A DNA stretch of 46,804 nucleotides from Spirochaetota bacterium. GTDB taxonomy: Bacteria; Spirochaetota; UBA12135; COTS27; JAFLEE01. A model generated the notes under the pieces. The model was not told where the DNA came from, searched no databases, and saw only the letters and a program-made list of their open reading frames with translations. Below are positions 8,658-31,288 of this stretch, piece after piece (position 1 is the stretch's first letter; each line of letters opens with the position of its first letter). Location: contig JAFLEE010000034.1 of assembly GCA_017302015.1 (NCBI GenBank), positions 1 to 46,804 on the forward strand. Reading direction: 5' to 3'. The translations under genes were made by a program, and so were the position numbers.

Positions 8658-8696
8658 GGGAACTCCTTGGAAATCGGATTGGGGTGAAATTCAGCG

Positions 8697-8712
8697 TGTG
8701 ACGCGTATCACT
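8697..8712. promoter_or_regulatory. Putative operator at the fucI transcription start
   Basis: TGTGACGCGTATCACT is an imperfect inverted repeat (GTGA..TCAC around a central CG). Half-sites resemble a CRP site (TGTGA-N6-TCACA), while the CG centre recalls LacI-family operators. Its place just downstream of the predicted -10 favours a repressor over an activator. Confidence 0.4.
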
Positions 8713-8719
8713 TGACGAT

Positions 8720-8748
8720 ATTCTACACCTTTTTCCGCGGGCTGGCGA
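8720..8748 (-). promoter_or_regulatory. Sigma-70-type promoter of fucI
   Basis: Minus strand: TCGCCA (8748-8743), 17-base spacer, TAGAAT (8725-8720). Predicted transcription start is near 8713, inside the inverted repeat at 8697-8712. The -35 has two mismatches and the -10 has one. Confidence 0.45.
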
Positions 8749-8772
8749 AAAAAAATCGCCCCTTTCGGGGCG
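8748..8772 (-). terminator. Intrinsic terminator of the esterase gene
   Basis: Minus strand: CGCCCC-gaaa-GGGGCG stem with a tight tetraloop, then an A and eight T. It lies about 130 bases after the stop of the hydrolase gene and just upstream of the fucI promoter, isolating fucI from read-through. Confidence 0.85.
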
Positions 8773-8905
8773 GATTTCAATTCTGTCCATGACGATGTCA
8801 AAACGGTGCAGGGAAACGGGCCCAACCCCGGGCGGCAGGGGGCACCGTCCGAGACGCGGGCCATAATAAAGCCTTTCGTCCCCGAAAACCGGCCGGCCAC
8901 CAGGC

Positions 8906-9976: not shown

Positions 9977-10094
9977 GGGCGCTCCTCGTCGACTTGGCCT
10001 TAAGGGCCTGTGTGGCTTATCCCCAGCACGGCTGGGATCCGGTCACGCGGGCTCTTTGCGATTCGCCGCGCAGGCCCTTTCGCGGCGGCCTCCA

Positions 10095-17594: not shown

Positions 17595-19466
17595 ATGCGC
17601 CTGAAAATCGCCCTCCTCCTCGCCGCCCTCCTGGGCCTCCTCCCCGCCGCCGACGGAAAGTTCCAAGTGGGGAAATCCTTCGAGCGGCTCCTCATCCTCG
17701 AGCAGGGCCGCCTCAAGCCCATGGACTCCTACGCCCGTAAATTCCTCCTCGGCATCTCCAGCCGCTCGCGGGCCCAGGGCCTGAGCGCGTCGGCCTGGTT
17801 CGCGCGGCTCCTCTTCGAACCCGTGAAGGCCAGCGAGGACGCGGTCTTCCGCGTGTATAATGAAGAGACCATCACCGCGATGGGGCTCCAATTGCCCGAA
17901 TCGCGGCGCTACTCGTTCCGCCAATTGGAACCGGGCATGGAGAAACTCCTGGAGCTCGCCCGGGCCGCCGACGCCAAGCCCGAGGCGACCCGCAGCCTCG
18001 TGGAGAAGGAGGTCATCGGCCTCTACATGAGCCTCTCGACCTTCCAGAACCTGGCCAATAGCCTCGCCTTCGCCGACACCGGCCGCCACATCGAGATCGC
18101 CGAAGAAAAGAACCGCCGGCTCTTCGACCTCAAACCCGGCGAATCCCTCACGCTTCCCGGCTTCCTCGCCCGCCGGCGCGAGATCGCGGCGAAATTGCCG
18201 GCCGCCGACATGCACGGCGGGCACGGGGGAACGCCCGACGTCGCCGAACTCTTCCGGATCATGTACTGGGTGGAATCGCTGAAAGCCGTCCCCGGCCTGC
18301 CCAACCTCGACATCCTCCCCGATTACCGCGACGGCAGCGAGCGCTGGTACGCCCCCTGGGTCTACCTCACCGAGATCGACGACAAGAGCCATGACGACAC
18401 GATCGCGGCCCTGCAGAAGGCCACCGCGGCCTACAAGGCCGGCGATTCGGCCGCCTTCGAGCAGGCCTTCGCCGACTTCGATCAGCGGGCCCTCGCCCGC
18501 ATCCCCGCCCGCTTCGCCGCGCCCCGCCCCGCCCTCGAGGTCTTCTACAACAAACTCGACGGCTTCTACAAGGCCGAGATCCTCTACGGCCTCTCCTTCG
18601 TCCTGATCCTCCTGTTCCTGCTCTTCAACGCGGGGCGCCTGCGCCAGGCCGCCGGGATCTCCCTGGCCCTCGGGGCGGCCTTCAACCTGGCCGCCATCGC
18701 GATCCGCACCTTCCTCACCGGCCGGGCCCCGGTGACGAACCTCTTCGAGACCTTCGTCTTCGTCGGCCTCACCGCCTCGGTGCTCGGCCTGATCCTCGAG
18801 CGCTTCAACCGCCGGGGCATCGGCACCCTCACCGGCTCCCTCGGGGCCATCGGCATGCTCCTCATCTCGGGCGCCTATTCCAGCGACGGCGACACCATGG
18901 GGCCCATGGTGGCCGTGCTGCGCAGCAATTTCTGGCTGGCGACCCACGTGCTGACCATCACCATCGGCTACGCCGGGGTCGTCGTCGCCGGCATCATCGC
19001 CCACGTGCACCTCATCCAGGCGATGCGCCGCAAGACGGAGCCCGCCGCCCTCGAGAACACCATGCGCATGCTCTACGGCGCCCTCGCCGTGGGCTTCCTG
19101 TTCACCTTCGTCGGCACGGTGCTCGGCGGCGTCTGGGCCGACCAATCCTGGGGGCGCTTCTGGGGATGGGACCCCAAGGAGAACGGCGCCCTGGCCATCG
19201 TCCTGTGGACGTCCATCCTGCTCCACGCCCGCCTGACGAAATTGGTGGACGGCCACCTCTTCGCCGCCGGCACGGCCCTCGGCACCGTCTTCGTGATGCT
19301 GGCCTGGTTCGGCGTCAACCTCCTCGGCGTCGGGCTCCATTCCTACGGCTTCACCACCGGCATCGCCACCGGGCTCTTCGCCTTCACGTTCCTCGAGGTC
19401 GCTTTCGCGGCGTTCGCCCTCTGGTGGCTGAAGGTCCGCGCGCCCCGGGCCGTCGCGGGGAACTGA
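17595..19466 (+). CDS. ccsA: Cytochrome c maturation protein CcsA/ResC with N-terminal periplasmic extension
   Basis: A 623-residue protein. A signal/anchor segment and about 300 residues of periplasmic, helix-rich sequence precede the conserved eight-helix heme-handling part. The WWD motif (VWADQSWGRFWGWDPKENG) near residue 515-535 binds heme, flanked by conserved His (ATHVLTITIGYAG; HSYGF near the C-terminus). The N-terminal extension is typical of fused or extended CcsA forms in Bacteroidetes- and PVC-type systems. It begins 13 bases after ccsB with a GGAT-type ribosome binding site. Confidence 0.92.
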   Translation: MRLKIALLLAALLGLLPAADGKFQVGKSFERLLILEQGRLKPMDSYARKFLLGISSRSRAQGLSASAWFARLLFEPVKASEDAVFRVYNEETITAMGLQLPESRRYSFRQLEPGMEKLLELARAADAKPEATRSLVEKEVIGLYMSLSTFQNLANSLAFADTGRHIEIAEEKNRRLFDLKPGESLTLPGFLARRREIAAKLPAADMHGGHGGTPDVAELFRIMYWVESLKAVPGLPNLDILPDYRDGSERWYAPWVYLTEIDDKSHDDTIAALQKATAAYKAGDSAAFEQAFADFDQRALARIPARFAAPRPALEVFYNKLDGFYKAEILYGLSFVLILLFLLFNAGRLRQAAGISLALGAAFNLAAIAIRTFLTGRAPVTNLFETFVFVGLTASVLGLILERFNRRGIGTLTGSLGAIGMLLISGAYSSDGDTMGPMVAVLRSNFWLATHVLTITIGYAGVVVAGIIAHVHLIQAMRRKTEPAALENTMRMLYGALAVGFLFTFVGTVLGGVWADQSWGRFWGWDPKENGALAIVLWTSILLHARLTKLVDGHLFAAGTALGTVFVMLAWFGVNLLGVGLHSYGFTTGIATGLFAFTFLEVAFAAFALWWLKVRAPRAVAGN

Positions 19467-19484: not shown

Positions 19485-20969
19485 TTGGACGCCCCCCTCG
19501 CCCGTTTCCTGCCCCGGACTCTCGTCTCCAAGTTCGTCGCCACGGCCTTCCTCGCCGTGTCGCTGGTGACCCTGACCGTGGGGATCCTCGGCTACCGCTA
19601 CCAGAAGAAGCACCTGCGGGAACTCGCCGAGAACGAGTTCCAGACCCAGGGGCGCACCATCGCCGCGCTCATGCTCGACCTCTTCCGCCAGGCCGAACTC
19701 TCGGGGATCCGCCGGGCCGAGTACCTCAACACGGCCATCAGCCAACTCCGCCTCACCGACCCGAAGCGCATCCTCAAGATCCGCATCTTCGACGAGCGGC
19801 GCGAATTGGTGGCGGCCAGCGATCCCAAGGATTTCCTCGCCCTCACCCGGCTGACGATCCGCCTCCCCAACCCCCTCATGGAGACCGTCCTCTATAACGG
19901 GGAGGAGGCGGTGGTGGTGCTGCGCCCCTTGGGCCCCGCCACGCTGACCTGGGGCTACCTGGAGATCTTCTACAGCCTGGAGCAGGAGGCCGTCTTCCTG
20001 AAGAACTTCGTCGCCTCCGAGGTCCAGGTCGGCCTCGGGATCCTCGCCCTCACCCTCCTCATCTCCTGGGGGTTCGCCCGCGAACTCGCGCGCCCGATCC
20101 GCCGCCTCACCCGGGAGGTGCTGGCCGTGAACCCGGAGCACTTCACCACCGAACTCGTGAAGGACCGCAACGACGAGATCGGGATCCTCCAGGAGAACTT
20201 CGTCGGCCTCATCGGCCGCCTGCGCGAGGCCCGCGAGGGCGAGCGGCGCATCCAGGCCCAACTCATCCACACGAGCAAGCTCGCCGCCCTCGGCACCCTC
20301 ACCGCCGGCGTGGCCCACGAGATCAATAACCCCATCACCGGGATGCAGTCCTGCCTCGCCCGCCTGCAGGATACGGTGAAGGAGCCGGGGGCCGCGCGCT
20401 ACCTCGACGTGACGCGGCGCTCCCTGGCCCATATCGAGAAGGTCGTGCGCGGCCTCCTCGACTTCACCCGGGTGAAATCCTACCGCTTCGTCTGCGCCCA
20501 ATTCGCGCCGGTCGTGGAGCATAGCCTCGCCCTCGTCTCCTACCGGCTCAAGGACGGGCGCATCCGCATCGTTTGGGATCCCGCCGAGGGGGGGAGCATC
20601 AGCGGCCAATGGGACGGCCCCCAATTGGAGCAGGTGGTCGTGAACCTGCTCCTCAACGCCATCGACGCCCTGGAGGAGAAGGAGGGCGGGACCATCACCA
20701 TCACCGCCTCGCGAAACGGCGCCCAGGCCCTCCTGGCGATCCGCGACGACGGCCCGGGCATCCCGGCCCAAAACTTAAGCCGGGTCTTCGACCCCTTCTT
20801 CACCACCAAGGGCCCCGACAAGGGGACGGGCCTCGGCCTCTCGGTGAGCGATAAGATCATCCAGGACCACGGCGGCACCCTGGAGGTCGACTCCCCGCCC
20901 GGAGGCGGCGCGGTCTTCACCCTGCGCCTCCCGGCCGAGTCCGCTGGGGTCCCCGGGAGCGCGGCATGA
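19485..20969 (+). CDS. Membrane sensor histidine kinase (NtrB-like)
   Basis: A 494-residue kinase. Membrane segment 1 at about 15-37, a periplasmic sensor region of about 140 residues without recognisable motifs, membrane segment 2 at about 180-198, HAMP (ARPIRRLTREVL), then an H-box (GVAHEINNPITGMQ, His near 277), N-box (LLNAIDAL), G1 (DDGPGIP) and G2 (GTGLGLSV): a complete kinase. The start is TTG, 18 bases after ccsA; its ribosome binding site is weak. The stop overlaps the regulator ATG (ATGA). Being in one operon with heme-attachment genes suggests it senses redox state, electron acceptor or cytochrome status. Confidence 0.88.
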   Translation: MDAPLARFLPRTLVSKFVATAFLAVSLVTLTVGILGYRYQKKHLRELAENEFQTQGRTIAALMLDLFRQAELSGIRRAEYLNTAISQLRLTDPKRILKIRIFDERRELVAASDPKDFLALTRLTIRLPNPLMETVLYNGEEAVVVLRPLGPATLTWGYLEIFYSLEQEAVFLKNFVASEVQVGLGILALTLLISWGFARELARPIRRLTREVLAVNPEHFTTELVKDRNDEIGILQENFVGLIGRLREAREGERRIQAQLIHTSKLAALGTLTAGVAHEINNPITGMQSCLARLQDTVKEPGAARYLDVTRRSLAHIEKVVRGLLDFTRVKSYRFVCAQFAPVVEHSLALVSYRLKDGRIRIVWDPAEGGSISGQWDGPQLEQVVVNLLLNAIDALEEKEGGTITITASRNGAQALLAIRDDGPGIPAQNLSRVFDPFFTTKGPDKGTGLGLSVSDKIIQDHGGTLEVDSPPGGGAVFTLRLPAESAGVPGSAA

Positions 20970-22363
20970 AGATCTTCCTCATCGACGACGAGGAGAGCAT
21001 CCGGGTCGGGATCGGCGAGGATATCCGCGACCTCGGCCACGAGGTCCTGGATTTCGAGGATCCCCTCGCCGCCCTCGACGCCCTCCCCCGCGAGGAGCCC
21101 GACCTCGTCTTCTGCGACCTGCGCATGCCGAACCAGGGCGGCGCCGAGACGCTGCGCCGCATCCGCAAGCACGATCCCGGCATCATCGTCATCATCATCA
21201 CGGCCTTCGGCGACGTGCAGTCCTCCATCGAATGCATCAAGGCGGGCGCGTTCGACTACCTCTGCAAGCCCTTCCAGGTCGAGGACCTGCGGGGGGTGCT
21301 CGAGAAGGCCGCGGTGTTCGCCTCCTACCGCCTCGCGGCCCGGGAATTGGCCCGGGAACGCACGGCCCGCTTCGGCCGCCTTACCTTCATCGGGAAGACC
21401 CCCGCGATGGCCCGCGTCTTCGAGCAGGTCGAGACCGCGGCGGGCTCCGACGCCACCGTCCTCGTCGAGGGCGAGACGGGCACCGGCAAGGAGGTCGTGG
21501 CCGACGCCATCCACCAGCAAAGCGCCCGCAAGAACGGGCCGATGGTCAAGTTCAGCTGCTCCACCTTCTCGTCCACCGTCATCGAGAGCGAGCTCTTCGG
21601 CCACGAACTCGGGGCGTTCACGGGGGCCGTCCGCCAGAAGCGCGGCCGGTTCGAACTCGCCGAGGGCGGCACCCTTTTCCTCGACGAGGTCGACGACATC
21701 CCCATGGACCTCCAGGTCAAACTGCTGCGGTTCATCCAGAACCGCACCTTCGAGCGGGTGGGCGGCGAAAAATCACTCAAGGCCAACGTCCGCCTCATCG
21801 CGGCGACGAAGAAGGACCTCCTGGCCCTCGTCGAACGGGGGCTCTTCCGCTCCGACCTCTATTACCGCCTCAATGTCCTGCCCATCGATCTTCCCCCCCT
21901 GCGCGAGCGCCGCGAGGATATCCCCCTGCTCGTCCACCATTTCCTCGGGAAGTACGGGGCCTCCCGCGATCTGCGGCTCTCTCCCGAGGCCTTCGCCTGC
22001 CTGATGGCCGCCCCGTGGCCCGGCAACGTGCGCCAATTGGAGAACCTCATCGAACGCCTTTCGGTGACCGCGGCGGGCCCGGAAATCGCCGCCTCGGACC
22101 TGCCGGATGAACTCAAGTGCCCGGCGCCAAGCGCCAAGGCCGAGTCGGCCGAGGGCCCCATCGGCCCGGGATTTTCCCTCGAACAGTGGCTTTCGGAGGC
22201 GGAAAAAAAGCACCTCACCCAGGCGTTAAAGCAAGCGTCGGGGAACCAGAAGGAGGCCGCGGCGCTCCTCGGAATCCCCTCTTCCACCTTCCGCAACAAG
22301 GCCCTGCGGCTCAAACTGCTCTCCTCCGAGGGGCTCGAAGGGGACCCGGCCGATAGGAAATAG
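20966..22363 (+). CDS. Sigma-54-dependent response regulator (NtrC family)
   Basis: A 465-residue activator. The receiver domain (1-120) has Asp7/Asp8, phospho-acceptor Asp51 in DLVFCDLRMP and Lys in LCKPF. The AAA+ domain (about 145-380) has Walker A GETGTGKE, the sigma-54-contacting GAFTGA loop, Walker B LFLDEVDD and arginine finger RSDLYYRL. The Fis-type helix-turn-helix (EAAALLGIPSSTFRNKALRL) is at about 425-450. All elements needed to activate a sigma-54 promoter are present. The best target in this window is the promoter at 31170-31185. It is translationally coupled to the kinase. Confidence 0.93.
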   Translation: MKIFLIDDEESIRVGIGEDIRDLGHEVLDFEDPLAALDALPREEPDLVFCDLRMPNQGGAETLRRIRKHDPGIIVIIITAFGDVQSSIECIKAGAFDYLCKPFQVEDLRGVLEKAAVFASYRLAARELARERTARFGRLTFIGKTPAMARVFEQVETAAGSDATVLVEGETGTGKEVVADAIHQQSARKNGPMVKFSCSTFSSTVIESELFGHELGAFTGAVRQKRGRFELAEGGTLFLDEVDDIPMDLQVKLLRFIQNRTFERVGGEKSLKANVRLIAATKKDLLALVERGLFRSDLYYRLNVLPIDLPPLRERREDIPLLVHHFLGKYGASRDLRLSPEAFACLMAAPWPGNVRQLENLIERLSVTAAGPEIAASDLPDELKCPAPSAKAESAEGPIGPGFSLEQWLSEAEKKHLTQALKQASGNQKEAAALLGIPSSTFRNKALRLKLLSSEGLEGDPADRK

Positions 22364-22423: not shown

Positions 22424-23911
22424 TCAGTCGTTGCCGCCGGTATGGCAATCGGAGCAGGACATCTCCTTCCAAGCGTCGCCGATGTCCACGGGATGCTCGA
22501 AGGGCACGCCGTCGAGGTTCTTCTTGGTCTTTCCGGGAACGCCCTGTTCGACCACCGTGTGGCAGGAATTGCAATCCCGCGTGATCGCCTTGCCCGTCGG
22601 GGCCTTGTGCTGGTCGTCATGGCAGCGGAAACACCCGTGGGAGAGGAAGTGCCCGATATGGTCGTCGTGCGTATCCCAGCGCGTCTTCATCTCGGGGAAC
22701 ATGTTCTCGCCGTAGAGGGCGGCGAGTTTGGCGCCGGCGGCCTCGACCTTCTTCTGGTTCGCGGCGAAATAGGCCGCGTGGTCCTTGCGGTAATACTCGA
22801 CCACCCCGGCCTGGATGGCCGCCTGGGCGGCCGGGGCCTTCTCGTACTTCGCGGAGAGGAGTTCCACGGCCTTGGCCTTGAACCCGGGGAGTTCCCGGTC
22901 GATGGCGCCGTACTGGAGGGCGTTGTTGACGATCTTGTAGGGGGGGAGGTAGTTATGGGAAGGCCGGTTGTGGCAATCGATGCAGTCCATGTGCCGGATG
23001 AGTTCGGCCGGCGGCGCCTTTTCCTTGTATTTGGAATCGGGTGAGGTGTAGATCGTCGCCTGGCCCTTGCGGTCGACCGACTTCACCCAACTGATCACGT
23101 TGCGCCGCTTGTCGTCGGCGACGTAGTACACGTCTTGGTCGATGTTCATGTGGGCGTGGACGCCGTTATTGAACTTGTCGCTGCCGCCGACCTTCATCAT
23201 CATGCGGATGATCCAACTCTTATTCTCGCCGCTCTTGAGGAAGTACTCCCGCTTGAAATCGAAGGATCCGAAGAACTTTCCGGGCCAGTGGCACTGCTTG
23301 CAGGTCTCGGTGGCGGGGCGCAGGTTGTGGATGGGCGTGGCGACGGGGCGGTCGTAGGAGTTCCCGATCGTCTTGAAGACCTGCCGCAGCCCCGACAGTT
23401 TCGATTTCACGTACCAGTCGACCCCGGAGCCGATATGGCATTCGACGCAGGTGACCTTGGCGTGGGGCGAATTGAGGTAGGCGGTGTGCTCGGGCTTCAT
23501 CACGCTATGGCAGAGGGTTCCGCAGAACTCCACCGACTCGGTGTAGTGGAAGCTCTTATAGGTGCCGATGATGGTGAGGATCAGGAAGACGGTGAAGACG
23601 GCGATCGTGGCCGCCGCGATCCTCACCTGGCCCATCTGGGAGAAGTCGAAACTGAACTTGGAGGAGCCCACGACGTCGAACTTATTGTCCCGGAAGCGCT
23701 TGCGGGCGCGCCACGCGCCGAAGAACATGAGGAAGAGGCCGACGAAAATGAAGGGCGGGAGCAGGATATAGGTGAAGATCTCGAGGTAGGCGCTGGATTT
23801 CGCGACGACGAGGTCGAGGGTGAACAGGCAGATCTCGGCCACGATGAAGAAGAACGCGATGGCGGCCCCGACGAAGGAGATGCGGTTGTAGATGAAGTTG
23901 GGGAGTTTCAT
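22424..23911 (-). CDS. NapC/NirT-type membrane multiheme cytochrome c, 7 heme sites
   Basis: A 495-residue protein with three N-terminal membrane segments (about 10-33, 42-67, 94-118) and a large periplasmic part. Heme sites: a CX3CH (ESVEFCGTLCHSVMKPEH) in the position typical of this NapC/NirT subgroup, then CVECH, CKQCH, CIDCH, CFRCH, CNSCH and CSDCH. Family members pass electrons from quinol to periplasmic partners. It lies after an intrinsic terminator at the end of the conduit run, so it may be transcribed less or separately. The ATG has GAGG upstream. It converges with the regulator gene. Confidence 0.85.
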   Translation of the reverse strand: MKLPNFIYNRISFVGAAIAFFFIVAEICLFTLDLVVAKSSAYLEIFTYILLPPFIFVGLFLMFFGAWRARKRFRDNKFDVVGSSKFSFDFSQMGQVRIAAATIAVFTVFLILTIIGTYKSFHYTESVEFCGTLCHSVMKPEHTAYLNSPHAKVTCVECHIGSGVDWYVKSKLSGLRQVFKTIGNSYDRPVATPIHNLRPATETCKQCHWPGKFFGSFDFKREYFLKSGENKSWIIRMMMKVGGSDKFNNGVHAHMNIDQDVYYVADDKRRNVISWVKSVDRKGQATIYTSPDSKYKEKAPPAELIRHMDCIDCHNRPSHNYLPPYKIVNNALQYGAIDRELPGFKAKAVELLSAKYEKAPAAQAAIQAGVVEYYRKDHAAYFAANQKKVEAAGAKLAALYGENMFPEMKTRWDTHDDHIGHFLSHGCFRCHDDQHKAPTGKAITRDCNSCHTVVEQGVPGKTKKNLDGVPFEHPVDIGDAWKEMSCSDCHTGGND

Positions 23912-23922
23912 GGGGCCTCTTT

Positions 23923-23953
23923 AAAAAACAATCCCGGCGCTTGCGCGCCGGGA
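23923..23953 (-). terminator. Intrinsic terminator after the diheme cytochrome gene
   Basis: Minus strand: a 9-bp perfect stem (TCCCGGCGC/GCGCCGGGA) with a 4-base loop, then TTGTTTTTT. It lies 29 bases after the stop of the diheme cytochrome and 12 bases before the NapC-like start. Confidence 0.9.
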
Positions 23954-23981
23954 GAGCGGTGTTCCGCGGGTCGCGGGGGAA

Positions 23982-24539
23982 TTATTTGAGCGTGGCGAGG
24001 TAGGCGGCCAGGGCCTTGAGTTCCTCGGGCGTCCCGCTGTAATTTCCCTTGTGGGCCTTGTCGCCCTTGTTGATCTTCTTCGCGACGAAGCCCTCGATCC
24101 AATCGGCCTTCTGCGAGGCCCCGACCTTGGAGAGGTCGCCGCCCATCGCCTTGTCTTTCGTGAGGCCGATGGCGTTGACCGAATGGCACATGGTGCACTT
24201 GTTCTTCGTGAGGAGGTTCTCGCCGGTGATCTGCACGAGCCAGGCGGCGAGGGTCTCGAGGTCGGCCCCGGCGTAGGCGACCGGGTGGGGCTTGCCGTTG
24301 ACATCCTGCTTTTTCAGGGTGACGTTCTTCACGAAGTCGAGGGACTTGCCGGCGAGGCTGGTGGGGAGGTCGCCGCCCTTGGGGGGGTTCTCCTTGGTGA
24401 GCCCGGCGACGTTGGCCGTGTGGCACATGGTGCACTTGCCATCGGTGAAGGCCTTGGTGCCTTCGGTCTTGCCGACGGCGAACGCGGCGCTGACGCCGAG
24501 GCTGAGCGCCAAGACGAGGGAAATCGGTTTTACGGTCAT
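23982..24539 (-). CDS. Periplasmic diheme cytochrome c, tandem-duplicated
   Basis: A 185-residue exported protein (signal peptide ending AAFA). It is made of two similar class I-like cytochrome units, each with KCTMCH, a GLTK(E/D) segment and a GGDL motif, ending with LAAWL or LAAYL helices. The second unit ends at the usual LAAYLATLK tail. This internal duplication suggests an origin from a monoheme c. It probably shuttles electrons across the periplasm between membrane cytochromes and the outer-membrane conduit. AGGAG lies just upstream of the ATG. Confidence 0.9.
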   Translation of the reverse strand: MTVKPISLVLALSLGVSAAFAVGKTEGTKAFTDGKCTMCHTANVAGLTKENPPKGGDLPTSLAGKSLDFVKNVTLKKQDVNGKPHPVAYAGADLETLAAWLVQITGENLLTKNKCTMCHSVNAIGLTKDKAMGGDLSKVGASQKADWIEGFVAKKINKGDKAHKGNYSGTPEELKALAAYLATLK

Positions 24540-24582
24540 GGGAATCTCCTGTTTTTTTATGTTGAAGACGGGGTCGAGGGGT

Positions 24583-25083
24583 TCACTGGTTCGAATACCA
24601 GGGACGATTGACGGGGGTCATGGTATGGCATCCGGCGTTGCTGGCGCCGCTGCACGTTCCAGACTGGACGCCCGCATCGCCGCCCCAGTGGATATTCGTG
24701 AGCGCCGGTTCGAAGTATACGATGGTCACGTTCCGATCGGGAGCGTCCATCGCGCCGTTCATGTGGGCCCCGTTCGTCGCGTAGCCGTAGTGGCAGCGGA
24801 CGCAGGCGATGGCGTATTCGCCGGCGTGGAGTTTGTGCTTCCCTTTGACGTTGGTCCCCCCGGTGATGAGGGGGTTGATGGCGTCCTGGCCGGCTCCCGC
24901 GTGGCAGGCGGAGCAGGCGAGGTTCGTGATCGTATTCGTCTGGGGATTGAGCACGGGCACGTAGACGAGGTCGTTCTGCCCCGGTTGGCGGATGCATCCG
25001 GCCACCAGCCAGAAGAGGAGGCCGCTGAGCGCGAGTACCGTGCCGGGGGCGAGGAGGCGCGCGAGGGTTTTGGCGTTCATCAT
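24583..25083 (-). CDS. Small heme lipoprotein (2 CxxCH plus a CX7CH)
   Basis: A 166-residue lipoprotein (LVAGC). I start it at the ATG-ATG pair at 25083 preceded by AAGGA; longer in-frame starts lack a ribosome binding site and would bury the signal peptide. Heme sites are CSACH and CVRCH. Near the C-terminus CSGASNAGCH has the form CX7CH and may be a third, unusual heme site or a disulfide/metal site. It sits between the heptaheme lipoprotein and the diheme c and is probably part of the same electron path. Confidence 0.75.
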   Translation of the reverse strand: MMNAKTLARLLAPGTVLALSGLLFWLVAGCIRQPGQNDLVYVPVLNPQTNTITNLACSACHAGAGQDAINPLITGGTNVKGKHKLHAGEYAIACVRCHYGYATNGAHMNGAMDAPDRNVTIVYFEPALTNIHWGGDAGVQSGTCSGASNAGCHTMTPVNRPWYSNQ

Positions 25084-25109
25084 GGAGGATCCTTGGAAGT
25101 TTCCCCGGC

Positions 25110-25676
25110 TCATTTCACGTGGCACGACTTGCAGTCGAGGCTATGGTTGATCGGGTGGGGAGCGGTCGTATGGGGGCGCCGCTTGTGGCAGACGGTGCAG
25201 CTCTCGTCGGTCGGTGCGCCGTTGTCGAGGTGGCAGGAGACGCAATGCTTCTTGGCCCAATTGGCGCCGTGGCTGCGGGGGGCCGTCTCGCGGTGGCAGG
25301 AGGCGCAATAGTCCTCTCGGTGGCAGGAGGCGCAGCGGTCGCGGTCGCTGGCGGCGGAGAGGCCGTGGGTCTTGGCGCGCCACAGGCCCCCGCGGTGGTC
25401 CCCGGGCATCTTGGAGGCGTGGCAGGATTGGCAATCGTTCGCCGCGTGACAGACCAGGCACGATTCGGCGTCGGCCATCCCGTTCATGGTCTTCCCGTGC
25501 ATGCGCACCCAATCGCCGCGGTGGCTTTCGGGGGCCGGAAAGGCCAGCTTCGCGGAGCCCGCGGGGCATTGCTTGGCCCCGTCGGCGCCGGAGCGGCAGC
25601 CCGTCACGAGCGCGGCCAGGGCGACGAGACCGAGGAGGGCGGCGCCCGCGAGCGCCGAGGTGTTTTTAGAACTCAT
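25110..25676 (-). CDS. Heptaheme outer-membrane lipoprotein cytochrome
   Basis: A 188-residue lipoprotein (LVTGC) with seven CxxCH sites (CLVCH, CQSCH, CASCH, CASCH, CVSCH, CTVCH, CKSCH) packed into about 110 residues. Further His residues are available as distal ligands. Its ATG lies inside the end of the porin gene (11-base overlap), so the two are translationally coupled. This pairing of porin plus dense-heme protein is the core arrangement of porin-cytochrome electron conduits. The protein could sit on the inner face of the pore or inside it. Confidence 0.85.
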   Translation of the reverse strand: MSSKNTSALAGAALLGLVALAALVTGCRSGADGAKQCPAGSAKLAFPAPESHRGDWVRMHGKTMNGMADAESCLVCHAANDCQSCHASKMPGDHRGGLWRAKTHGLSAASDRDRCASCHREDYCASCHRETAPRSHGANWAKKHCVSCHLDNGAPTDESCTVCHKRRPHTTAPHPINHSLDCKSCHVK

Positions 25677-27165
25677 AGTTGATCCCGGCGCGGAAATGGT
25701 GGCTGATGTCGATGCCCTGCTCGAACTCGTAGCGCGCGTCGAGGGAGAGGCCCGCCGCCAGGGGGATTTGGGCCTTGGCGTACCACGTGCGCACGTCGAC
25801 CTTCTCGATCCAGTTCGTCCCCGTCGCGGAGCCGAGATCGACGGTGTCGTAGGCGTAGTAGGAAAAATAGGTGCCCGCGCTGAGTTTAATCCGGCCCCCG
25901 GGGCCCGGGCGCAGGCGCTCGTCGTAACTGACGTCGAAACCGCCGGAGAAGGAAACCCGGGGGGCGGAGGCCCAGACATCCCCGGTCGCGCTCACCGTGA
26001 GGGCATCGAGGATCGGGTGGACGGCCACCGCGAGGAACCCGCGCATATAGGAGCGGTTGAAGGCGGAGGCGTCGTTGGTCGTGAAGAGGCCGCGGAAGAA
26101 ATACCCCCCATCGACCGAGAGGTAGCGGCCCAAGGCCTTGGAGGCCGAAAGATCCACCGAGCAGAAGGGCTTGCTCGCGCCCATGACCCCGGTGAAATAG
26201 GGGTTGGCCGGGTTCACGAAATTGGAGTTCGTCGTCGCGAAGCGGGCGACCCCGGAGAGGTGCAGATCGAGACCGATTTTCTCGAGGATGGAATCGACCC
26301 GCACCCGCGCATCGAAGGGGCTGAAGTCGAGGGCGCGGAAAGAGGCCTGGTAGCCCAGGATCGACCCGATGCGGTGGGAGAAGCCCGCTCCCAGGCGGTG
26401 GTCCATCGTCACGACGGCCGCGTCCACAGGGTATTGGGCGCTGCGCAGAAACTGGTAGTCGACCGTGGCGCTCATGCCCGAGGCGATCTTGAGGCGCAGG
26501 TCGGCGCCGACCGTCCAGTCCGAGCCCCAGGCGTCTTGGAGTTCATAGAAGGGGGAGAGGACGCCCCCGTAGAGTTTCACCGAGAGGCGCTTGGCGACGG
26601 ACAGGGAGACGCCCGCCCCATCGAGGGGGAGGGAACCCAGTTCCGCCCGGTAGAATCGCCCGAACTTGATCTCATCGAGGGCGAACGCGGCGGACCCGAA
26701 GCTTCGCGTGAAGGTGACGAAGGCGGTGTCAAGGAAGGCCTCGTTCCCGAAGCCGAGCTGCCCGGTGTAGATATTGGCCAGGGGATTGAAGAAGCGCCCG
26801 TTGGTGCCGCTGCCGAGATCGCTTCGGAAGGAGCCCGAAGCCTCGAAGCTGAAGTCTCGCGCCAGTTCCCCGCGCAACAGGCCGCGCACCCAGAGGAGCC
26901 GGTCGCCACGCTCGCCGGCCTGGTTGGCCGCACTGGCGTTGGTGTCGCCGACGGGAAACGCTCCCCGCATGAGGTTCCCCTCGAAACGGGTGGAGAAGGC
27001 CCCGTGGACCTCCGGGGTGAAGGCGTCGACACGGGCGGGGGTGCGGTTGGAGGCGGTCTCGGCGGCCATCGCGCCCCCGAAGAAAGCCGCGGCGAAGCAC
27101 GCGGCGAGGACCAGCTGGGAGGGGAGGCAGAGGCTTCGTTTCATGGTTTTTTCCGCGTGCTTCAT
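25666..27165 (-). CDS. Outer-membrane beta-barrel porin of an electron conduit
   Basis: A 499-residue exported protein (signal peptide ending GGAMAAE). It is dominated by alternating hydrophobic/polar strands rich in aromatic residues at strand ends and finishes with a C-terminal Phe (AGINYEF), the hallmark of barrels assembled by BamA. No CxxCH is present. Sequence similarity to MtrB/PioB/OmbB porins is not evident by eye, but its place between penta- and heptaheme genes with overlaps on both sides (ATGA with the pentaheme, 11 bases with the heptaheme) argues for a conduit role. Confidence 0.75.
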   Translation of the reverse strand: MKHAEKTMKRSLCLPSQLVLAACFAAAFFGGAMAAETASNRTPARVDAFTPEVHGAFSTRFEGNLMRGAFPVGDTNASAANQAGERGDRLLWVRGLLRGELARDFSFEASGSFRSDLGSGTNGRFFNPLANIYTGQLGFGNEAFLDTAFVTFTRSFGSAAFALDEIKFGRFYRAELGSLPLDGAGVSLSVAKRLSVKLYGGVLSPFYELQDAWGSDWTVGADLRLKIASGMSATVDYQFLRSAQYPVDAAVVTMDHRLGAGFSHRIGSILGYQASFRALDFSPFDARVRVDSILEKIGLDLHLSGVARFATTNSNFVNPANPYFTGVMGASKPFCSVDLSASKALGRYLSVDGGYFFRGLFTTNDASAFNRSYMRGFLAVAVHPILDALTVSATGDVWASAPRVSFSGGFDVSYDERLRPGPGGRIKLSAGTYFSYYAYDTVDLGSATGTNWIEKVDVRTWYAKAQIPLAAGLSLDARYEFEQGIDISHHFRAGINYEF

Positions 27166-27647
27166 GGGGTGGCCGCCGCGTTCACCTTCTGGTGGCAGGC
27201 CGCGCAGCGCTTCGGCCCGGAAAGCGCCGCGGAGACCATGAGTTTGGGATGGGCGGACTTGTGCGGCTCATGGCAGGTGACGCAACTGAACTCGGCGCCC
27301 TTCTTGAGGGGACTTACTTTTCCCTGGACGGGGTGGGCCTTGGCGAGGAGGCCCGCCGTGATGTGCTTCCCCGTCGCCGCCTGCTCATGGCAACCCGCGC
27401 AGAGCGCCGTCATGTTGGTCTTGAGCGACAGCACGGGCTTCGCCGCATCGGCGTGGGGCGCTACATGGCACTGGTCGCAGCCCAATTCCACCGCGGCGTG
27501 CACGAAGGCGCCCTTGCCGGTATTGGAGTGGCAATCGGTGCAGGCCTCCGCCTGCCCGAGGCGGAGCAGGGGAAGGGCGAAGAGGGCGAGGATGGGGAGG
27601 GATCGTCGGATCATGCGTTTCATTTGGCTTTCCCGGGGGCGCGTCAT
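27162..27647 (-). CDS. Periplasmic pentaheme cytochrome c
   Basis: A 161-residue exported protein with five heme sites (CTDCH, CDQCH, CAGCH, CVTCH, CAACH). The CVTCH...CAACH spacing with CHEPHKSAHP resembles the paired-CxxCH family. ATGA overlaps at both ends link it to the upstream Reeler-like gene and the downstream porin. A second ATG eight codons in (27623) has GGGAAAG upstream and would give a more typical signal peptide, so the true start may be there. It probably feeds the porin complex. Confidence 0.83.
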   Translation of the reverse strand: MTRPRESQMKRMIRRSLPILALFALPLLRLGQAEACTDCHSNTGKGAFVHAAVELGCDQCHVAPHADAAKPVLSLKTNMTALCAGCHEQAATGKHITAGLLAKAHPVQGKVSPLKKGAEFSCVTCHEPHKSAHPKLMVSAALSGPKRCAACHQKVNAAATP

Positions 27648-28768
27648 CTCGGTCGCACGACGTAGACGCGGACCAGGCGGTCGGCGTCGGGGGTCTGGAG
27701 GCGAAGAAAATACACGCCGTCGGGAACGGCCACGCCGTTGTCATTGGCGCCGTTCCAAGCGACCGTCTGCCATAGGCCGGCGGCGGTGACGGAAAAGGCG
27801 CGCACCGGCTGGCCGAGGAGGGTCAGCGCCGAGGCTTTGATCACCGCGCCGCTACGGGCGACGTGCACCAGGACCTGGCAGGACTCGCCCGCGTCGGGGT
27901 TGATGGTGCTCTTGACCACCTGCATGCCGATGGGAGCGGCCACGTTGGTCAGGGCCCCATCGAGGGTCACGGACGTACTGGCCGGATTGGTCACGGTGAG
28001 GGAATAGGCGCCCGGCGCATAACCGAAGGGGATCACCGCGGTCAGGTTGGTGGCGTTGACCCAGGTGGTCGCCACCGCGGTGCCCCCGAAGAGCACTGAA
28101 GCGTTGGAGGCGAAACGGGACCCGATGATCGAGATCACCGAGGTCACCTGGTTGCTGAGCGTGTTCGGCGTGACCGAACGGAGCGTCGGCGCCGTGAGGT
28201 CTTCGGCGGAAGCCCAGTTCGTCTCGTAGACGGAGGCCCCGGAGATATTGATGCCGTTCCCGAGCACCGTGGACGCGTAGAAAGTGGCGGTGCCCTGGCC
28301 GGCGGGGGGCGCCGTCCATTTGACCGTCCAGTTGGTGAAATTGGTGTAGGTGGTGTGGCTGACGTAGGCGGCCTCGAGCCCGTCGCCCTTGCCGCTATGC
28401 CCGCGAACGCCGGTGTTCACGGGATCCACCAGGCTCCAGGCGCCGATCATGGAATTGGTGGCGCTATTGGCCGTGAGGCTGAACCCGGTGCGGCCGGCCA
28501 CCGTCGCCCGCACGCGGAGCGTCAGCGAGTAGGTCGCGCCCGGCACGTAGGTCGCCGGAAGTCCATCAAGGAAGAGGTTCGTGGAACTCTTTTGGATCGT
28601 CCCCGAGAAATGGCAGGCGACGGCGCAGCTATTATTGGAGGCCACGTTGCGCGGCACCGGATTTCGGAAATATTCCCCGCCTTCCGAGAAGGCGTGGAGC
28701 CCCTGCCAAACGGGCAGGCAAAAAAGCGCGGCAAGGAGGAAGGCGCCGCGGCCAAGATTCTTTTTCAT
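27644..28768 (-). CDS. Exported Reeler-like/IPT/FlgD-like protein with a CX3CH site
   Basis: A 374-residue exported protein (start at MKKN; the ATG four codons upstream has poorer spacing). After the signal peptide an NSCAVACHFSG site (CX3CH) starts a Reeler-like/choice-of-anchor-V domain (YVPGATYSLTLRV) to about residue 180. An IPT/TIG domain follows (about 190-275: LRSVTPNTLSNQ, IIGSRFASNASVLFGG). It ends in a FlgD-Ig-like domain (WNGANDNGVAVPDGVYFLRL) like the C-terminal sorting domains of type IX secreted proteins. The Reeler domain class often carries one heme-like motif. Location next to a PorV-like gene suggests surface export. Confidence 0.75.
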   Translation of the reverse strand: MKKNLGRGAFLLAALFCLPVWQGLHAFSEGGEYFRNPVPRNVASNNSCAVACHFSGTIQKSSTNLFLDGLPATYVPGATYSLTLRVRATVAGRTGFSLTANSATNSMIGAWSLVDPVNTGVRGHSGKGDGLEAAYVSHTTYTNFTNWTVKWTAPPAGQGTATFYASTVLGNGINISGASVYETNWASAEDLTAPTLRSVTPNTLSNQVTSVISIIGSRFASNASVLFGGTAVATTWVNATNLTAVIPFGYAPGAYSLTVTNPASTSVTLDGALTNVAAPIGMQVVKSTINPDAGESCQVLVHVARSGAVIKASALTLLGQPVRAFSVTAAGLWQTVAWNGANDNGVAVPDGVYFLRLQTPDADRLVRVYVVRPR

Positions 28769-28790
28769 CGTCTCATCCACCCTTTTCTAC

Positions 28791-29726
28791 TTAGAACCGG
28801 AAGGTCGTGCCGATGCTCTGGACCACGCCGAGGCCGGCGCGGGGCGAGAGCGCCCAATCCACGACGAACCGGCCGAAGTCGAGGCCGAGGCCGGCGGTGA
28901 AGGCCTGGACATCCGCGGAAACCTGGGCGCCCGCCCGCAGCGCCAGGGAAAACCGCTTGTTGAAGAGCGGCGATTTCGCCTCGAGACCGAAGCGGCCGCC
29001 CAATCCGCTATCCACCGCATACTCGGCTTCGGCGGAGGCCGCCAAGGATTGGAGCACCGGCGATTCAAGGGCGCGGAGGTAGACCCCACCGGCGCGGAGG
29101 GTGAAGTTCTGGGCCACGCTGACCCCGGCCACGCCGGCGCCGGGAATGGCCGTTCCGAGATTGAATACCGAGACGCCGAGGTTCACCCGGTTCACCGGCG
29201 TTCCTAATGCAGCGAGAAAACCGGCCCCGAGGGTCAGGGCCGGGGTCGTGGTCGTGGCGATGGTCTGGGAAAGGTAGCGCACCGACACGCCCAAGGAGAA
29301 CATCTTGAGGGTTCCCACCGCCGTCACGCCGACGCCCATATTATTGAAGGCGGTGGCGTCTTGGCCCGCGAGGAAGACCGTGGGATCGTCGACGCCCGAA
29401 GGGGCGAGAAAGCGGAAATCGGCGCCGACGACCAGATTGGAGTTCACCCGGAACGCCGTGGCGGCGTAGAGGTGCTGGAAGGAGGCGACCCAACTCATGT
29501 AATTGGCCAGCACCTCGAAGCGGGACCCGAGGCCGGAGAGGGCCGCCGGGTTCCACGCCGCGGCCGCGGGGCCGGAAGCCCGGGCCACCATGGCGCCGCC
29601 CTGGGCCATCCCGGCGGCGTCGGCATCGAGGTTCATGAAGAGGCCCGCCGCACTCCCGGTGCTCCCGTAGGAGAACGGGAGCGCCAGGGCGAGGGCCACC
29701 GCAAAACTTTTTATGAGGACTTTCAT
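28791..29726 (-). CDS. PorV/UPF0164-like outer-membrane protein
   Basis: A 311-residue exported barrel (signal peptide, C-terminal FRF). The N-terminal block AAGLFMNLDADAAGMAQGGA followed by AAAWNPAAL is the signature of the PorV/PorQ/UPF0164 group related to FadL. In type IX secretion PorV carries substrates with a C-terminal domain to the attachment machinery; in other lineages its role is unknown. It lies directly before the gene encoding a FlgD-like C-terminal domain. No strong ribosome binding site is visible before the ATG. Confidence 0.75.
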   Translation of the reverse strand: MKVLIKSFAVALALALPFSYGSTGSAAGLFMNLDADAAGMAQGGAMVARASGPAAAAWNPAALSGLGSRFEVLANYMSWVASFQHLYAATAFRVNSNLVVGADFRFLAPSGVDDPTVFLAGQDATAFNNMGVGVTAVGTLKMFSLGVSVRYLSQTIATTTTPALTLGAGFLAALGTPVNRVNLGVSVFNLGTAIPGAGVAGVSVAQNFTLRAGGVYLRALESPVLQSLAASAEAEYAVDSGLGGRFGLEAKSPLFNKRFSLALRAGAQVSADVQAFTAGLGLDFGRFVVDWALSPRAGLGVVQSIGTTFRF

Positions 29727-29765
29727 TGTTTATCGCTCATGCGCCCTTTGCCAAGCCTTGGGCGA

Positions 29766-31115
29766 TCAGTACCCGTTGAGGTTCGTGACGGCGAGCAGGG
29801 AACTCTGCAGGAGCCGCAGGGTGTAGGGATAATTGTGGACGCCCTTGCTGCCGTCGTTGAGAATGGTGCGGTAATTTTCCCAAGCGGCGACGCGGCCCAC
29901 GGGGAGCGATCCCTTACCGTTGGTGGTGGCGTAGGCGTTCGTATTCAAATACCCCCACGCATCGATGCGGTTCGTATTGGACTGGAACTTCGCACCGTTG
30001 GTGAAGATGGCCCAGTTTGAGGCCACCAGCGGCGTGTTCGTCCCGGCGAAGCCCTGGAAACCCCAGTTGGTGATATAGAGGAAGGTGTTCGTCATCTGGA
30101 GGGCATTGGCGGTAGTCATCACCCAATTGGTGACGAGCCAATTGCTGAGGGTGGCCATCAAGTTGGTGATCGTCGTTTGGGTCATGTGGTAGTCAAAGGT
30201 CGACCCGATGTCGGCATGGCAGGACTTGCAGACCGTCGTCTGGGCGACGCCCGTTTCTTTATTGGTCATGGCCAGGGAGTGGCCCGGGTTGGCGGCGCGC
30301 CCGGACCCGGAGACGTTATTGGTCGTGCGCATATGGCAGCCCACGCAGCTATCGGCGACCTGATTATAGTGGCCGTTGGGAATACCCGTTGTCCAATCCA
30401 TATTGGTGAATTGAAAGCCCGTGGCCAGCGCCGTGCCCGCGAGGATCATGGGCTGGGTGCCGTAGTGGGGGTCGCTGATGGTGGAGGTGAAATTGGTGTA
30501 CTGGGTCACCGTGCCGGCGCCACTTCCCGAGGAATAATAGGTGCCCGAGTTCGTGGCCCCGGCGACAAAGATTCGGCGAGGATTATGGCACGAAACGCAC
30601 ACGTTGCCCCGACCCTTATCGAAGGTGATGGTCGCGGTGGCCGTGAAGGTCACGGCGGCTTCGGAGCGCAGGGTGTAATCGCTGGCGGTGTAGGTGGAGT
30701 GGATCTTGTGGCAGGTGCGGCAATTGATCTGGATGGATTGAGCCACCGCGTAGGAAGGCTGGGTGACGCCATTGGGGCGACCGGCGGCCTGCCACATTTG
30801 ATGGCCCTGATCGCTATGGCAGCGGGAACAGGAGGCAATCACGCCCTCGGCGATATAGGCCGAGCCCGTATTGTGCTTGGAATCGTTGTATTGAACGATC
30901 TTCGTCTTGATGTCGGAATCGCTGTCGTGGCACTGGGAGCAATTGGCCCCGACCCCGGGAGCCCCGTCGATCCCGCTGATGCCGTTGGTGCCGTTCGCGC
31001 CGCCCGGCCCCATGGGCCCGGTGGTGGGAGTGCACGATGCGATGAAGAGGACCAGTCCCGCGGCCATCGGAAGGGCGAGCGCCTTTTTAAGGAACATGTT
31101 TGATTGCATCAGCAT
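29766..31115 (-). CDS. Hexaheme surface lipoprotein with collagen-like stalk
   Basis: A 449-residue lipoprotein (FIASC). The ATG at 31115 is chosen because GGGAG lies 7-8 bases upstream and the sigma-54 promoter covers the longer upstream start. Right after the lipid site come Gly-x-y triplets (GPMGPGGANGTNGISGIDG), a short collagen-like stalk. Six CxxCH sites follow (CSQCH, CSRCH, CRTCH, CVSCH, CVGCH, CKSCH), with several extra His. The last ~150 residues are Asn/Thr/Trp-rich without hemes and end GVHNYPYTLRLLQSS, a motif seen at the end of other multiheme families. As first gene of the run it is a good candidate for the cell-surface terminal reductase. Confidence 0.85.
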   Translation of the reverse strand: MLMQSNMFLKKALALPMAAGLVLFIASCTPTTGPMGPGGANGTNGISGIDGAPGVGANCSQCHDSDSDIKTKIVQYNDSKHNTGSAYIAEGVIASCSRCHSDQGHQMWQAAGRPNGVTQPSYAVAQSIQINCRTCHKIHSTYTASDYTLRSEAAVTFTATATITFDKGRGNVCVSCHNPRRIFVAGATNSGTYYSSGSGAGTVTQYTNFTSTISDPHYGTQPMILAGTALATGFQFTNMDWTTGIPNGHYNQVADSCVGCHMRTTNNVSGSGRAANPGHSLAMTNKETGVAQTTVCKSCHADIGSTFDYHMTQTTITNLMATLSNWLVTNWVMTTANALQMTNTFLYITNWGFQGFAGTNTPLVASNWAIFTNGAKFQSNTNRIDAWGYLNTNAYATTNGKGSLPVGRVAAWENYRTILNDGSKGVHNYPYTLRLLQSSLLAVTNLNGY

Positions 31116-31254: not shown

Positions 31255-31288
31255 ACGCCAAAAATGGTTTTGAAACCATTTTTGGCGT
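31255..31288. promoter_or_regulatory. 34-bp palindrome, candidate enhancer site for the NtrC-type activator
   Basis: ACGCCAAAAATGGTTT (31255-31270), two central bases, then its exact reverse complement (31273-31288). The centre is about 112 bases upstream of the predicted sigma-54 transcription start, the normal place for an activator enhancer. It lacks a T-run after the stem and no gene ends nearby, which argues against a terminator. Confidence 0.55.

What the first reader, a model, noticed from the sequence alone, without database searches (positions are those of the whole stretch)
22424..31115. Unusual porin-cytochrome conduit of nine genes
The run carries at least 29 heme sites and includes a barrel without evident MtrB/OmbB similarity, tightly overlapped with penta- and heptaheme genes. 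Two further lipoprotein cytochromes, a PorV-like protein and a Reeler/FlgD-like protein are also present. The set differs from the Mtr, Pcc and Omb layouts I know and may be a distinct type of extracellular electron transfer system.
Basis: partly seen in the sequence, partly recalled or inferred. Interest (0 to 1): 0.75.

Follow-up and report, generated by a model that had tools for sequence, protein, structure and literature searches.

The report
Divergent porin-cytochrome conduit in a spirochaete
This gene cluster from an uncultured spirochaete very probably builds an electron wire through the outer membrane, so the cell can respire minerals or other material outside itself; it is a far-diverged relative of a known wire type, in a phylum where I found no earlier report of one.

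Summary
Nine same-strand genes (22424-31115) encode six multiheme cytochromes with 28 CXXCH and 2 CXXXCH sites, a beta-barrel, a PorV/PorQ-like protein and a Reeler-domain protein. The genome is Spirochaetota. The barrel matches no Pfam, NCBIfam or PDB sequence; relatives occur in 1 other of 296 spirochaete genomes and 9 of 288 Verrucomicrobiota genomes. In all ten relatives with a readable downstream gene it is a 10-22-heme cytochrome; the nine compared are homologous to the window's heptaheme. AlphaFold2 gives a 22-strand barrel with no plug. The last gene meets the published ImcH description (inner-membrane quinol oxidase); a 19-heme CbcL-like gene lies 7 kb away. Profile comparison links barrel and heptaheme to a barrel/12-14-heme pair in Ignavibacteria and allies that resembles the published Ignavibacterium Pcc cluster. 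So this is most likely a divergent Pcc-like conduit: a new variant of a known kind. Unusual: a 7-heme lipoprotein plus a separate MtrA-half-like pentaheme replace one 12-14-heme cytochrome; the ImcH gene nests among Omnitrophota; the host is a spirochaete. Function and electron direction are inferred. Comparison with Geobacter OmbB and Ext porins was not possible.

The parts
29766..31115 (-). Hexaheme lipoprotein cytochrome (449 aa, lipobox FIASC, collagen-like GPMGPGG linker); homolog of the nonaheme cytochrome encoded just upstream of the barrel in Verrucomicrobiota; probable cell-surface cytochrome
   Evidence: 6 CXXCH; PF22113 MtrC/MtrF-like domain II/IV E 1.1e-18; 24-30% identity to Verrucomicrobiota nonahemes; alignment A11
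28791..29726 (-). PorV/PorQ-like outer-membrane protein, 311 aa
   Evidence: NF033709 PorV_fam E 3e-17 but 63 bits, below the 90-bit cut-off
27644..28768 (-). Reeler / choice-of-anchor V + TIG protein with one CXXXCH and a weak FlgD-like tail (374 aa from ATG 28768; frame also open from GTG 28780)
   Evidence: PF02014 E 1.9e-7, PF01833 E 1.6e-7, NF041895 E 1.4e-16; CAVACH
27162..27647 (-). Pentaheme cytochrome, 161 aa, no lipobox; half-MtrA/DmsE-like; candidate for the heme chain inside the barrel
   Evidence: 5 CXXCH; TIGR03508 DmsE family E 8.7e-12, below its cut-off; best PDB match 6R2Q chain A (MtrA, by my knowledge of that entry), its C-terminal half, E 0.006
25666..27165 (-). Beta-barrel sheath, 499 aa, 22 predicted strands, no plug domain
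   Evidence: AlphaFold2 model pLDDT 68, pTM 0.61, 22 strands; relatives; Pcc-like profile match
25110..25676 (-). Heptaheme lipoprotein cytochrome (188 aa, lipobox LVTGC); homolog of the C-terminal seven hemes of the 12-22-heme lipoproteins next to related barrels
   Evidence: 7 CXXCH; 33-44% identity over 117-148 aa to the downstream cytochrome in nine barrel loci; A9 vs A10 E 4.9e-38
24583..25083 (-). Diheme lipoprotein cytochrome (166 aa, lipobox LVAGC; frame open from GTG 25125)
   Evidence: 2 CXXCH
23982..24539 (-). Class I diheme cytochrome c, 185 aa; probable soluble periplasmic carrier
   Evidence: PF00034 E 2.8e-13, two stretches
22424..23911 (-). ImcH-like NapC/NirT inner-membrane quinol oxidase, 495 aa: 3 TM, one CXXXCH, six CXXCH
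   Evidence: tree places it inside Omnitrophota; definition from PMC6295460
12834..15587 (-). CbcL/MtrH/MtoC-like protein: 19 CXXCH plus b-type cytochrome domain, 917 aa
   Evidence: 45% to L142:9508, 47% to L047:5240 in Omnitrophota
17595..19466 (+). Cytochrome c assembly (CcsA-type) protein, divergently oriented neighbour
   Evidence: PF01578 E 1.6e-27
19485..20969 (+). Histidine kinase, possible regulator
   Evidence: PF02518, PF00512, HAMP
20966..22363 (+). Sigma-54-dependent response regulator, possible regulator
   Evidence: PF00158 E 1.4e-67, PF00072
23932..23953 (-). Terminator-like hairpin followed by a T-run, between the diheme cytochrome and the ImcH-like gene
   Evidence: 14 terminator-like sites found against 9.1 expected, so weak

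Best explanation
The cluster encodes a complete path for moving respiratory electrons out of a diderm spirochaete. Menaquinol in the inner membrane is oxidised by the ImcH-like protein (22424-23911) and/or the 19-heme CbcL-like protein (12834-15587). The diheme class I cytochrome carries electrons across the periplasm. The 22-strand barrel, which has no plug of its own, is filled by the pentaheme and/or the heptaheme lipoprotein, giving up to 12 hemes to span the membrane. The hexaheme lipoprotein on the surface passes electrons to an external acceptor such as iron or manganese oxide, humic matter or a partner cell. It works like Pcc and Mtr conduits and is probably a far-diverged member of the Pcc group. 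Shown: gene content, heme sites, lipoboxes, family assignments, barrel fold prediction, conserved barrel+cytochrome synteny. Inferred: assembly of the complex, which cytochrome sits in the barrel, surface location, acceptor, direction.
For: Barrel relatives in two phyla; in all ten relatives whose downstream gene can be read it is a 10-22-heme cytochrome on the same strand, and in the nine compared it is 33-44% identical to the window heptaheme over 117-148 aa. In all eight Verrucomicrobiota loci with readable upstream sequence the preceding gene is an 8-9-heme homolog of the window's hexaheme lipoprotein. ImcH-like genes about 40-42% identical to the window's lie about 5-7 kb from the barrel in four of those loci (L076, L141, L142, L144), with a CbcL-like gene next to it in L142 (45% identity) and multiheme frames cut by the locus end in L076 and L141. 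The ImcH definition is fully met (PMC6295460). AF2 barrel with 22 strands; its best fold matches by Z are the 22-strand barrels of TonB-dependent receptors, Z up to 19 over 350 residues, which carry a plug this protein lacks. Pcc porins are published as 18-22 strands with 5-14-heme cytochromes (PMC4245776); profile links exceed controls 111 and 122.
Against: No biochemical or expression data. The AF2 model is of moderate confidence (pLDDT 68) and no complex could be predicted. The heptaheme could face the periplasm rather than the surface. The link to the published I. album Pcc proteins rests on size, heme number, order and taxon of MAG relatives, not on those sequences themselves. OmbB and Ext porins of Geobacter were not available. 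Spirochaetota is a phylum with almost no other carriers (2 of 296).
Confidence: 0.8

Rival explanations
1. The same conduit runs inward: electrons from an external donor (Fe(II), a partner cell) enter through the surface cytochromes to the quinone pool.
For: CbcL/MtrH/MtoC homologs occur in both Fe(III) reducers and Fe(II) oxidisers (PMC6295460); porin-cytochrome wires are bidirectional in principle.
Against: ImcH homologs are so far reported only from Fe(III) reducers (PMC6295460) and one is directly in the cluster. No terminal oxidase or carbon-fixation genes were recognised in the window; the rest of the genome was not checked.
Confidence: 0.15
2. The barrel is an ordinary solute channel (for example for an oxyanion) and the cytochromes form a periplasmic reductase chain, with no transmembrane heme wire.
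For: Geobacter ExtI, a porin in a cytochrome cluster, is implicated in selenite and tellurite reduction and a channel role was not excluded (PMC5877670). Foldseek also returns solute porins.
Against: A plug-less 22-strand barrel would be a very large open pore. Its constant partner is a multiheme cytochrome, mostly a lipoprotein, in an overlapping frame. No catalytic reductase subunit was found in the cluster.
Confidence: 0.1
3. A genuinely separate conduit class: the barrel and its cytochrome arose independently of Pcc, and the profile match reflects generic beta-barrel and heme-motif similarity.
For: No pairwise sequence similarity to the Ignavibacteria-group barrels; no Pfam, NCBIfam or PDB match. 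Heme motifs alone produce hhalign scores (control, E 3.5e-10).
Against: A7 vs A4 is collinear over 348 columns, E 1.3e-10, while an unrelated large-barrel family gives E 0.016. A9 vs A10 is E 4.9e-38 over 279 columns, far beyond the heme-motif control. The same two genes are adjacent in the same order in both groups.
Confidence: 0.15

Closest known systems
Pcc (porin-cytochrome) clusters, in particular the Ignavibacterium album type (IALB_1839/1838/1837, PMC4245776)
   Same: Barrel in the 18-22 strand range followed directly by a multiheme cytochrome homologous over the C-terminal half; variable lipoprotein cytochromes; clusters of 2-9 genes; profile-level homology to the matching pair in Ignavibacteria/Chlorobi/KSB1 MAGs.
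   Different: The window has a 7-heme lipoprotein plus a separate pentaheme on the other side of the barrel instead of one 12-14-heme periplasmic cytochrome; adds PorV-like and Reeler proteins; barrel not detectable by pairwise search.
Unnamed Verrucomicrobiota (Kiritimatiellales and others) clusters found here (L076/L149, L141-L148, L127)
   Same: Same barrel family, same heptaheme domain, hexaheme/nonaheme homolog upstream; ImcH-like gene within reach in four of them.
   Different: Cytochrome has 12-22 hemes in one lipoprotein; no pentaheme, PorV or Reeler gene between.
MtrCAB / MtoAB / PioAB
   Same: Functional layout: inner-membrane quinol oxidase, barrel, multiheme cytochrome, surface lipoprotein; the pentaheme resembles half of MtrA.
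   Different: Barrel has no PF11854 match and 22 predicted strands against 26 in MtrB (PMC7198977); five, not ten, hemes in the MtrA-like protein.
Geobacter ExtABCD / ExtEFG / ExtHIJKL (PMC6148476)
   Same: Published composition of barrel (18-21 strands), dodecaheme and small lipoprotein cytochromes is similar in kind.
   Different: No sequence comparison was possible; no rhodanese, hydrogenase or selenoprotein genes in the cluster.
Verrucomicrobia porin-MHC clusters of freshwater MAGs (PMC5615132)
   Same: Barrel next to multiheme cytochromes, proposed for extracellular electron transfer in the same phylum as the nearest relatives.
   Different: Described with an eight-heme periplasmic cytochrome; not compared by sequence.

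Membership tests
MtrB/PioB conduit porins | Match to Pfam MtrB_PioB PF11854 or an NCBIfam counterpart | tested here: not met
   No Pfam or NCBIfam conduit-porin match at E<=1 for any of 11 barrel relatives; none elsewhere in the genome. No strong positive control genome was in the control set.
MtrB/PioB conduit porins | 26-strand barrel | tested here: inconclusive
   AF2 gives 22 strands at moderate confidence; MtrB strand count from PMC7198977; MtrB is not among the listed fold matches, which excludes nothing.
MtrB/PioB conduit porins | Adjacent decaheme MtrA-type cytochrome | tested here: not met
   Adjacent cytochromes have 5 and 7 hemes.
Pcc porin-cytochrome conduits | Porin with 18-22 transmembrane strands | tested here: met
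   22 predicted strands (pLDDT 68); range from PMC4245776.
Pcc porin-cytochrome conduits | Adjacent c-type cytochrome with 5-14 hemes, plus outer-membrane cytochrome, in a 2-9 gene cluster | tested here: met
   Pentaheme, heptaheme and hexaheme genes in a nine-gene run.
Pcc porin-cytochrome conduits | Sequence homology of barrel and cytochrome to the Ignavibacterial barrel/12-14-heme pair | tested here: met
   hhalign A7 vs A4 E 1.3e-10, A9 vs A10 E 4.9e-38, with weaker controls. That this pair is the published IALB_1839/1838 type is inferred from size, heme number, order and taxon (PMC4245776).
Pcc porin-cytochrome conduits | Direct homology to Geobacter OmbB/OmaB or IALB_1839/1838 | not testable with these tools
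   Those sequences were not in the collections reached.
Geobacter Ext conduits | Homology to ExtB, ExtE or ExtI porins | not testable with these tools
ImcH quinol oxidases (gene 22424-23911) | Three N-terminal TM helices, one CXXXCH next to them, six CXXCH, 495-519 aa in the Geobacter group | tested here: met
   495 aa, TM 6-25, 41-68, 93-121, CXXXCH at 130, six CXXCH; definition PMC6295460; NapC/NirT domain E 5.8e-10.
CbcL/MtrH/MtoC quinol oxidases (gene 12834-15587) | 3-23 CXXCH in the N-terminal part | tested here: met
   19 CXXCH, residues 27-574; range from PMC6295460.
CbcL/MtrH/MtoC quinol oxidases (gene 12834-15587) | C-terminal b-type cytochrome with six TM helices | tested here: inconclusive
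   PF01292 E 2.3e-5 and TIGR01583 E 7e-8, both below cut-off; hydropathy shows five segments after residue 595.
Type IX secretion (PorV plus sorted substrate) | PorV above NCBIfam cut-off and a type A sorting domain above cut-off | tested here: not met
   PorV_fam 63 of 90 bits, T9SS_OM_PorV 22.9 of 250; Por_Secre_tail 14.7 of 23. Core secretion genes were not searched for.

The most novel reading that the evidence does not exclude
A distinct conduit subclass, shared by Spirochaetota and Verrucomicrobiota and unlisted in protein family databases, in which a 22-strand barrel is sheathed around a heme chain that in the window comes in two pieces: an MtrA-half-like pentaheme entering from the periplasm and a heptaheme lipoprotein from outside. 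It would have been assembled by lateral transfer (ImcH-like gene from Omnitrophota-like donors) and would give a spirochaete extracellular respiration.
Probability: 0.35. Interest if true: 0.7.

Novelty: new variant of a known kind. Interest (0 to 1): 0.5.

Why it matters
It extends porin-cytochrome conduits to Spirochaetota, a phylum absent from the two published surveys consulted (PMC4245776 for Pcc, PMC6295460 for ImcH/CbcL). It also links scattered unannotated barrels in Verrucomicrobiota and the Ignavibacteria/Bacteroidota group into one superfamily. If the pentaheme and heptaheme together do the job of one 12-14-heme cytochrome, it shows that the transmembrane heme chain can be split and rebuilt from different cytochrome families. 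The barrel profile can be used to find more carriers.

Tried and rejected
Barrel-only scans of viral contigs and genome contigs found nothing: the family is too divergent for exact-peptide patterns. AlphaFold2 with only two sequences was useless (pLDDT 30); eleven sequences gave a usable model. The barrel profile found no match in 384 Omnitrophota genomes, in 45 genomes of the phylum of L049, or in 48 of 50 genomes carrying ImcH relatives. The ~700-aa open frames downstream of 7-heme genes in Omnitrophota (L048, L050, L053, L066) are not related to this barrel; the two scanned against Pfam had no match. I considered contamination of the bin and rejected it on composition: window parts correlate 0.89-0.97 with ten other pieces of the genome (tetranucleotides), other pieces 0.88-0.98 among themselves. 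I considered that the pentaheme is the split-off N-terminal half of the 12-heme cytochrome (5+7=12): the heme counts fit, but sequence similarity is no better than heme motifs give, so it is not claimed. A link to type IX secretion is unsupported. The G277 hit is an unrelated frame with no hemes nearby. No plasmid hit for the 12-heme cytochrome. MtrB is absent from the fold-match lists, which proves nothing.
Full report
Setting. The window is contig C94 of a 5.43-Mb, 93% complete genome. FlaA (PF04620), the spirochaetal filament outer-layer protein, is present in 40 of 41 genomes sampled from its phylum, including this one in three copies, and in none of 14 control genomes, so the phylum is Spirochaetota. 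The class is small: only four genomes are held. Tetranucleotide composition of the contig fits the rest of the genome.

Anatomy. On the minus strand, in order of transcription: hexaheme lipoprotein (31115-29766), PorV/PorQ-like protein (29726-28791), Reeler/choice-of-anchor V/TIG protein with one CXXXCH (28768-27644), pentaheme (27647-27162), barrel (27165-25666), heptaheme lipoprotein (25676-25110), diheme lipoprotein (25083-24583), class I diheme cytochrome (24539-23982), and a three-TM NapC/NirT protein (23911-22424). Heme sites: 28 CXXCH and 2 CXXXCH, against a mean of 0.14 CXXCH in shuffled proteins. A 19-heme protein with a b-type cytochrome domain lies at 15587-12834 on the same strand. 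Between it and the cluster, on the plus strand, are a CcsA-type cytochrome assembly gene, a histidine kinase and a sigma-54 response regulator.

Inner-membrane parts. The last gene meets every published feature of ImcH: three TM helices, one atypical CXXXCH, six CXXCH, 495 residues (PMC6295460). The 19-heme protein fits CbcL/MtrH/MtoC in heme number; its b-type domain matches below cut-off. ImcH and CbcL are the two proposed quinol oxidases of Geobacter extracellular respiration (PMC6295460). The nearest relatives of the ImcH-like protein are Omnitrophota (48-53% identity). A tree of 40 sequences puts it inside an otherwise almost wholly Omnitrophota clade with 100/100 support, away from the five other spirochaete homologs tested; this points to lateral transfer.

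The barrel. It matches nothing in Pfam, NCBIfam or PDB sequences, and the genome has no MtrB_PioB match. One relative (25% identity, E 2e-16) was found among 296 Spirochaetota genomes; it is followed by a 10-heme cytochrome homologous to the window heptaheme (34% over 127 aa). After adding a Kiritimatiellales locus brought in by the ImcH-like search, a three-sequence profile found the barrel in 9 of 288 Verrucomicrobiota genomes, and in one more reached by another route. In the ten relatives whose downstream gene is readable, it is always a 10-22-heme cytochrome on the same strand; the frames overlap by 4 bp in all eight Verrucomicrobiota loci measured. In the eight Verrucomicrobiota loci with readable upstream sequence the gene before the barrel is an 8-9-heme homolog of the window's hexaheme lipoprotein. 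Four of these loci also carry an ImcH-like gene about 5-7 kb from the barrel; in L142 the CbcL-like gene follows it. So the window and these loci share up to five homologous components.

Fold. AlphaFold2 with 11 sequences gives 22 strands, pLDDT 68, pTM 0.61. The best structural matches by Z are the 22-strand barrels of TonB-dependent receptors (Z up to 19.2, 350 residues, 3.8 A); Foldseek by E-value ranks ushers and solute porins. Unlike those receptors the protein has no plug domain, so an open pore would be large unless filled. This is an argument for a cytochrome inside, not a proof.

Placing it among known systems. Nine barrels from Ignavibacteria, Chlorobi, KSB1 and relatives, all in loci fetched for their ImcH-like gene, are followed in eight cases directly by a 12-14-heme cytochrome and often by 5-8-heme lipoproteins. 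This resembles the Ignavibacterium album Pcc cluster in PMC4245776 (porin IALB_1839, 400-residue 14-heme IALB_1838, outer-membrane IALB_1837), although that sequence itself was not available. Profile comparison gives E 1.3e-10 over 348 columns for the barrels, against 0.016 for an unrelated large-barrel family. It gives E 4.9e-38 over 279 columns for the cytochromes, against 3.5e-10 for a multiheme family of another kind. The published Pcc ranges (18-22 strands; 5-14 hemes; 2-9 genes) are met. I therefore file the system as a divergent, Pcc-like conduit.

What is different. In the window the seven C-terminal hemes of the usual 12-14-heme cytochrome stand alone as a lipoprotein. The N-terminal part is missing, and a separate pentaheme resembling half of MtrA/DmsE is encoded on the other side of the barrel, each in overlapping frame. 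The sum, twelve hemes, equals the Kiritimatiellales protein, but the pentaheme is not demonstrably its N-terminal half. PorV-like and Reeler proteins are extra and of unknown role here.

Mechanism. Most likely: menaquinol, ImcH-like and/or CbcL-like oxidase, diheme carrier, pentaheme/heptaheme chain within the barrel, hexaheme surface lipoprotein, external acceptor. Shown by sequence: components, motifs, families, synteny. Inferred: complex formation, surface exposure, direction, acceptor. Published surveys of Pcc and of ImcH/CbcL mention no spirochaete (PMC4245776, PMC6295460), and my paper searches found no report of such a conduit in the phylum; the library is open-access only.

Noticed in passing
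window 32092-33999 (+): Methyl-accepting chemotaxis protein with a CMECH motif and a class 40H sensor match (PF21563), a sensor type that, from memory, binds c-type heme in Geobacter; an in-frame TAG at 32383 splits the frame in two. It faces away from the conduit cluster and may be a redox-taxis receptor, a pseudogene or an assembly error.
   Followed up: partly
window 31256-31287: Perfect 15-bp inverted repeat (CGCCAAAAATGGTTT-TG-AAACCATTTTTGGCG) about 140 bp upstream of the hexaheme start codon, in an AT-richer intergenic stretch: possible regulator site or terminator.
   Followed up: no
L048, L050, L053, L066 (Omnitrophota): Near their ImcH-like genes, a 7-heme gene is followed by a ~700-aa protein with little database match; this looks like another porin-cytochrome type.
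   Followed up: partly
L143-L147 (Verrucomicrobiota): The lipoprotein next to the barrel has grown from 12 to 18-22 hemes by extra C-terminal heme pairs, suggesting extension of the heme wire by repeat addition.
   Followed up: no
window 6843-11735 (-): L-fucose isomerase, an esterase-like protein and a GH123 glycoside hydrolase in a row: a sugar-degradation cluster, unrelated to the conduit but suggesting polysaccharide use.
   Followed up: no
L038-L041 (other Spirochaetota): ImcH-like genes in other spirochaete families sit next to 10-13-heme cytochromes without any recognised barrel; these form separate branches of the ImcH tree.
   Followed up: partly
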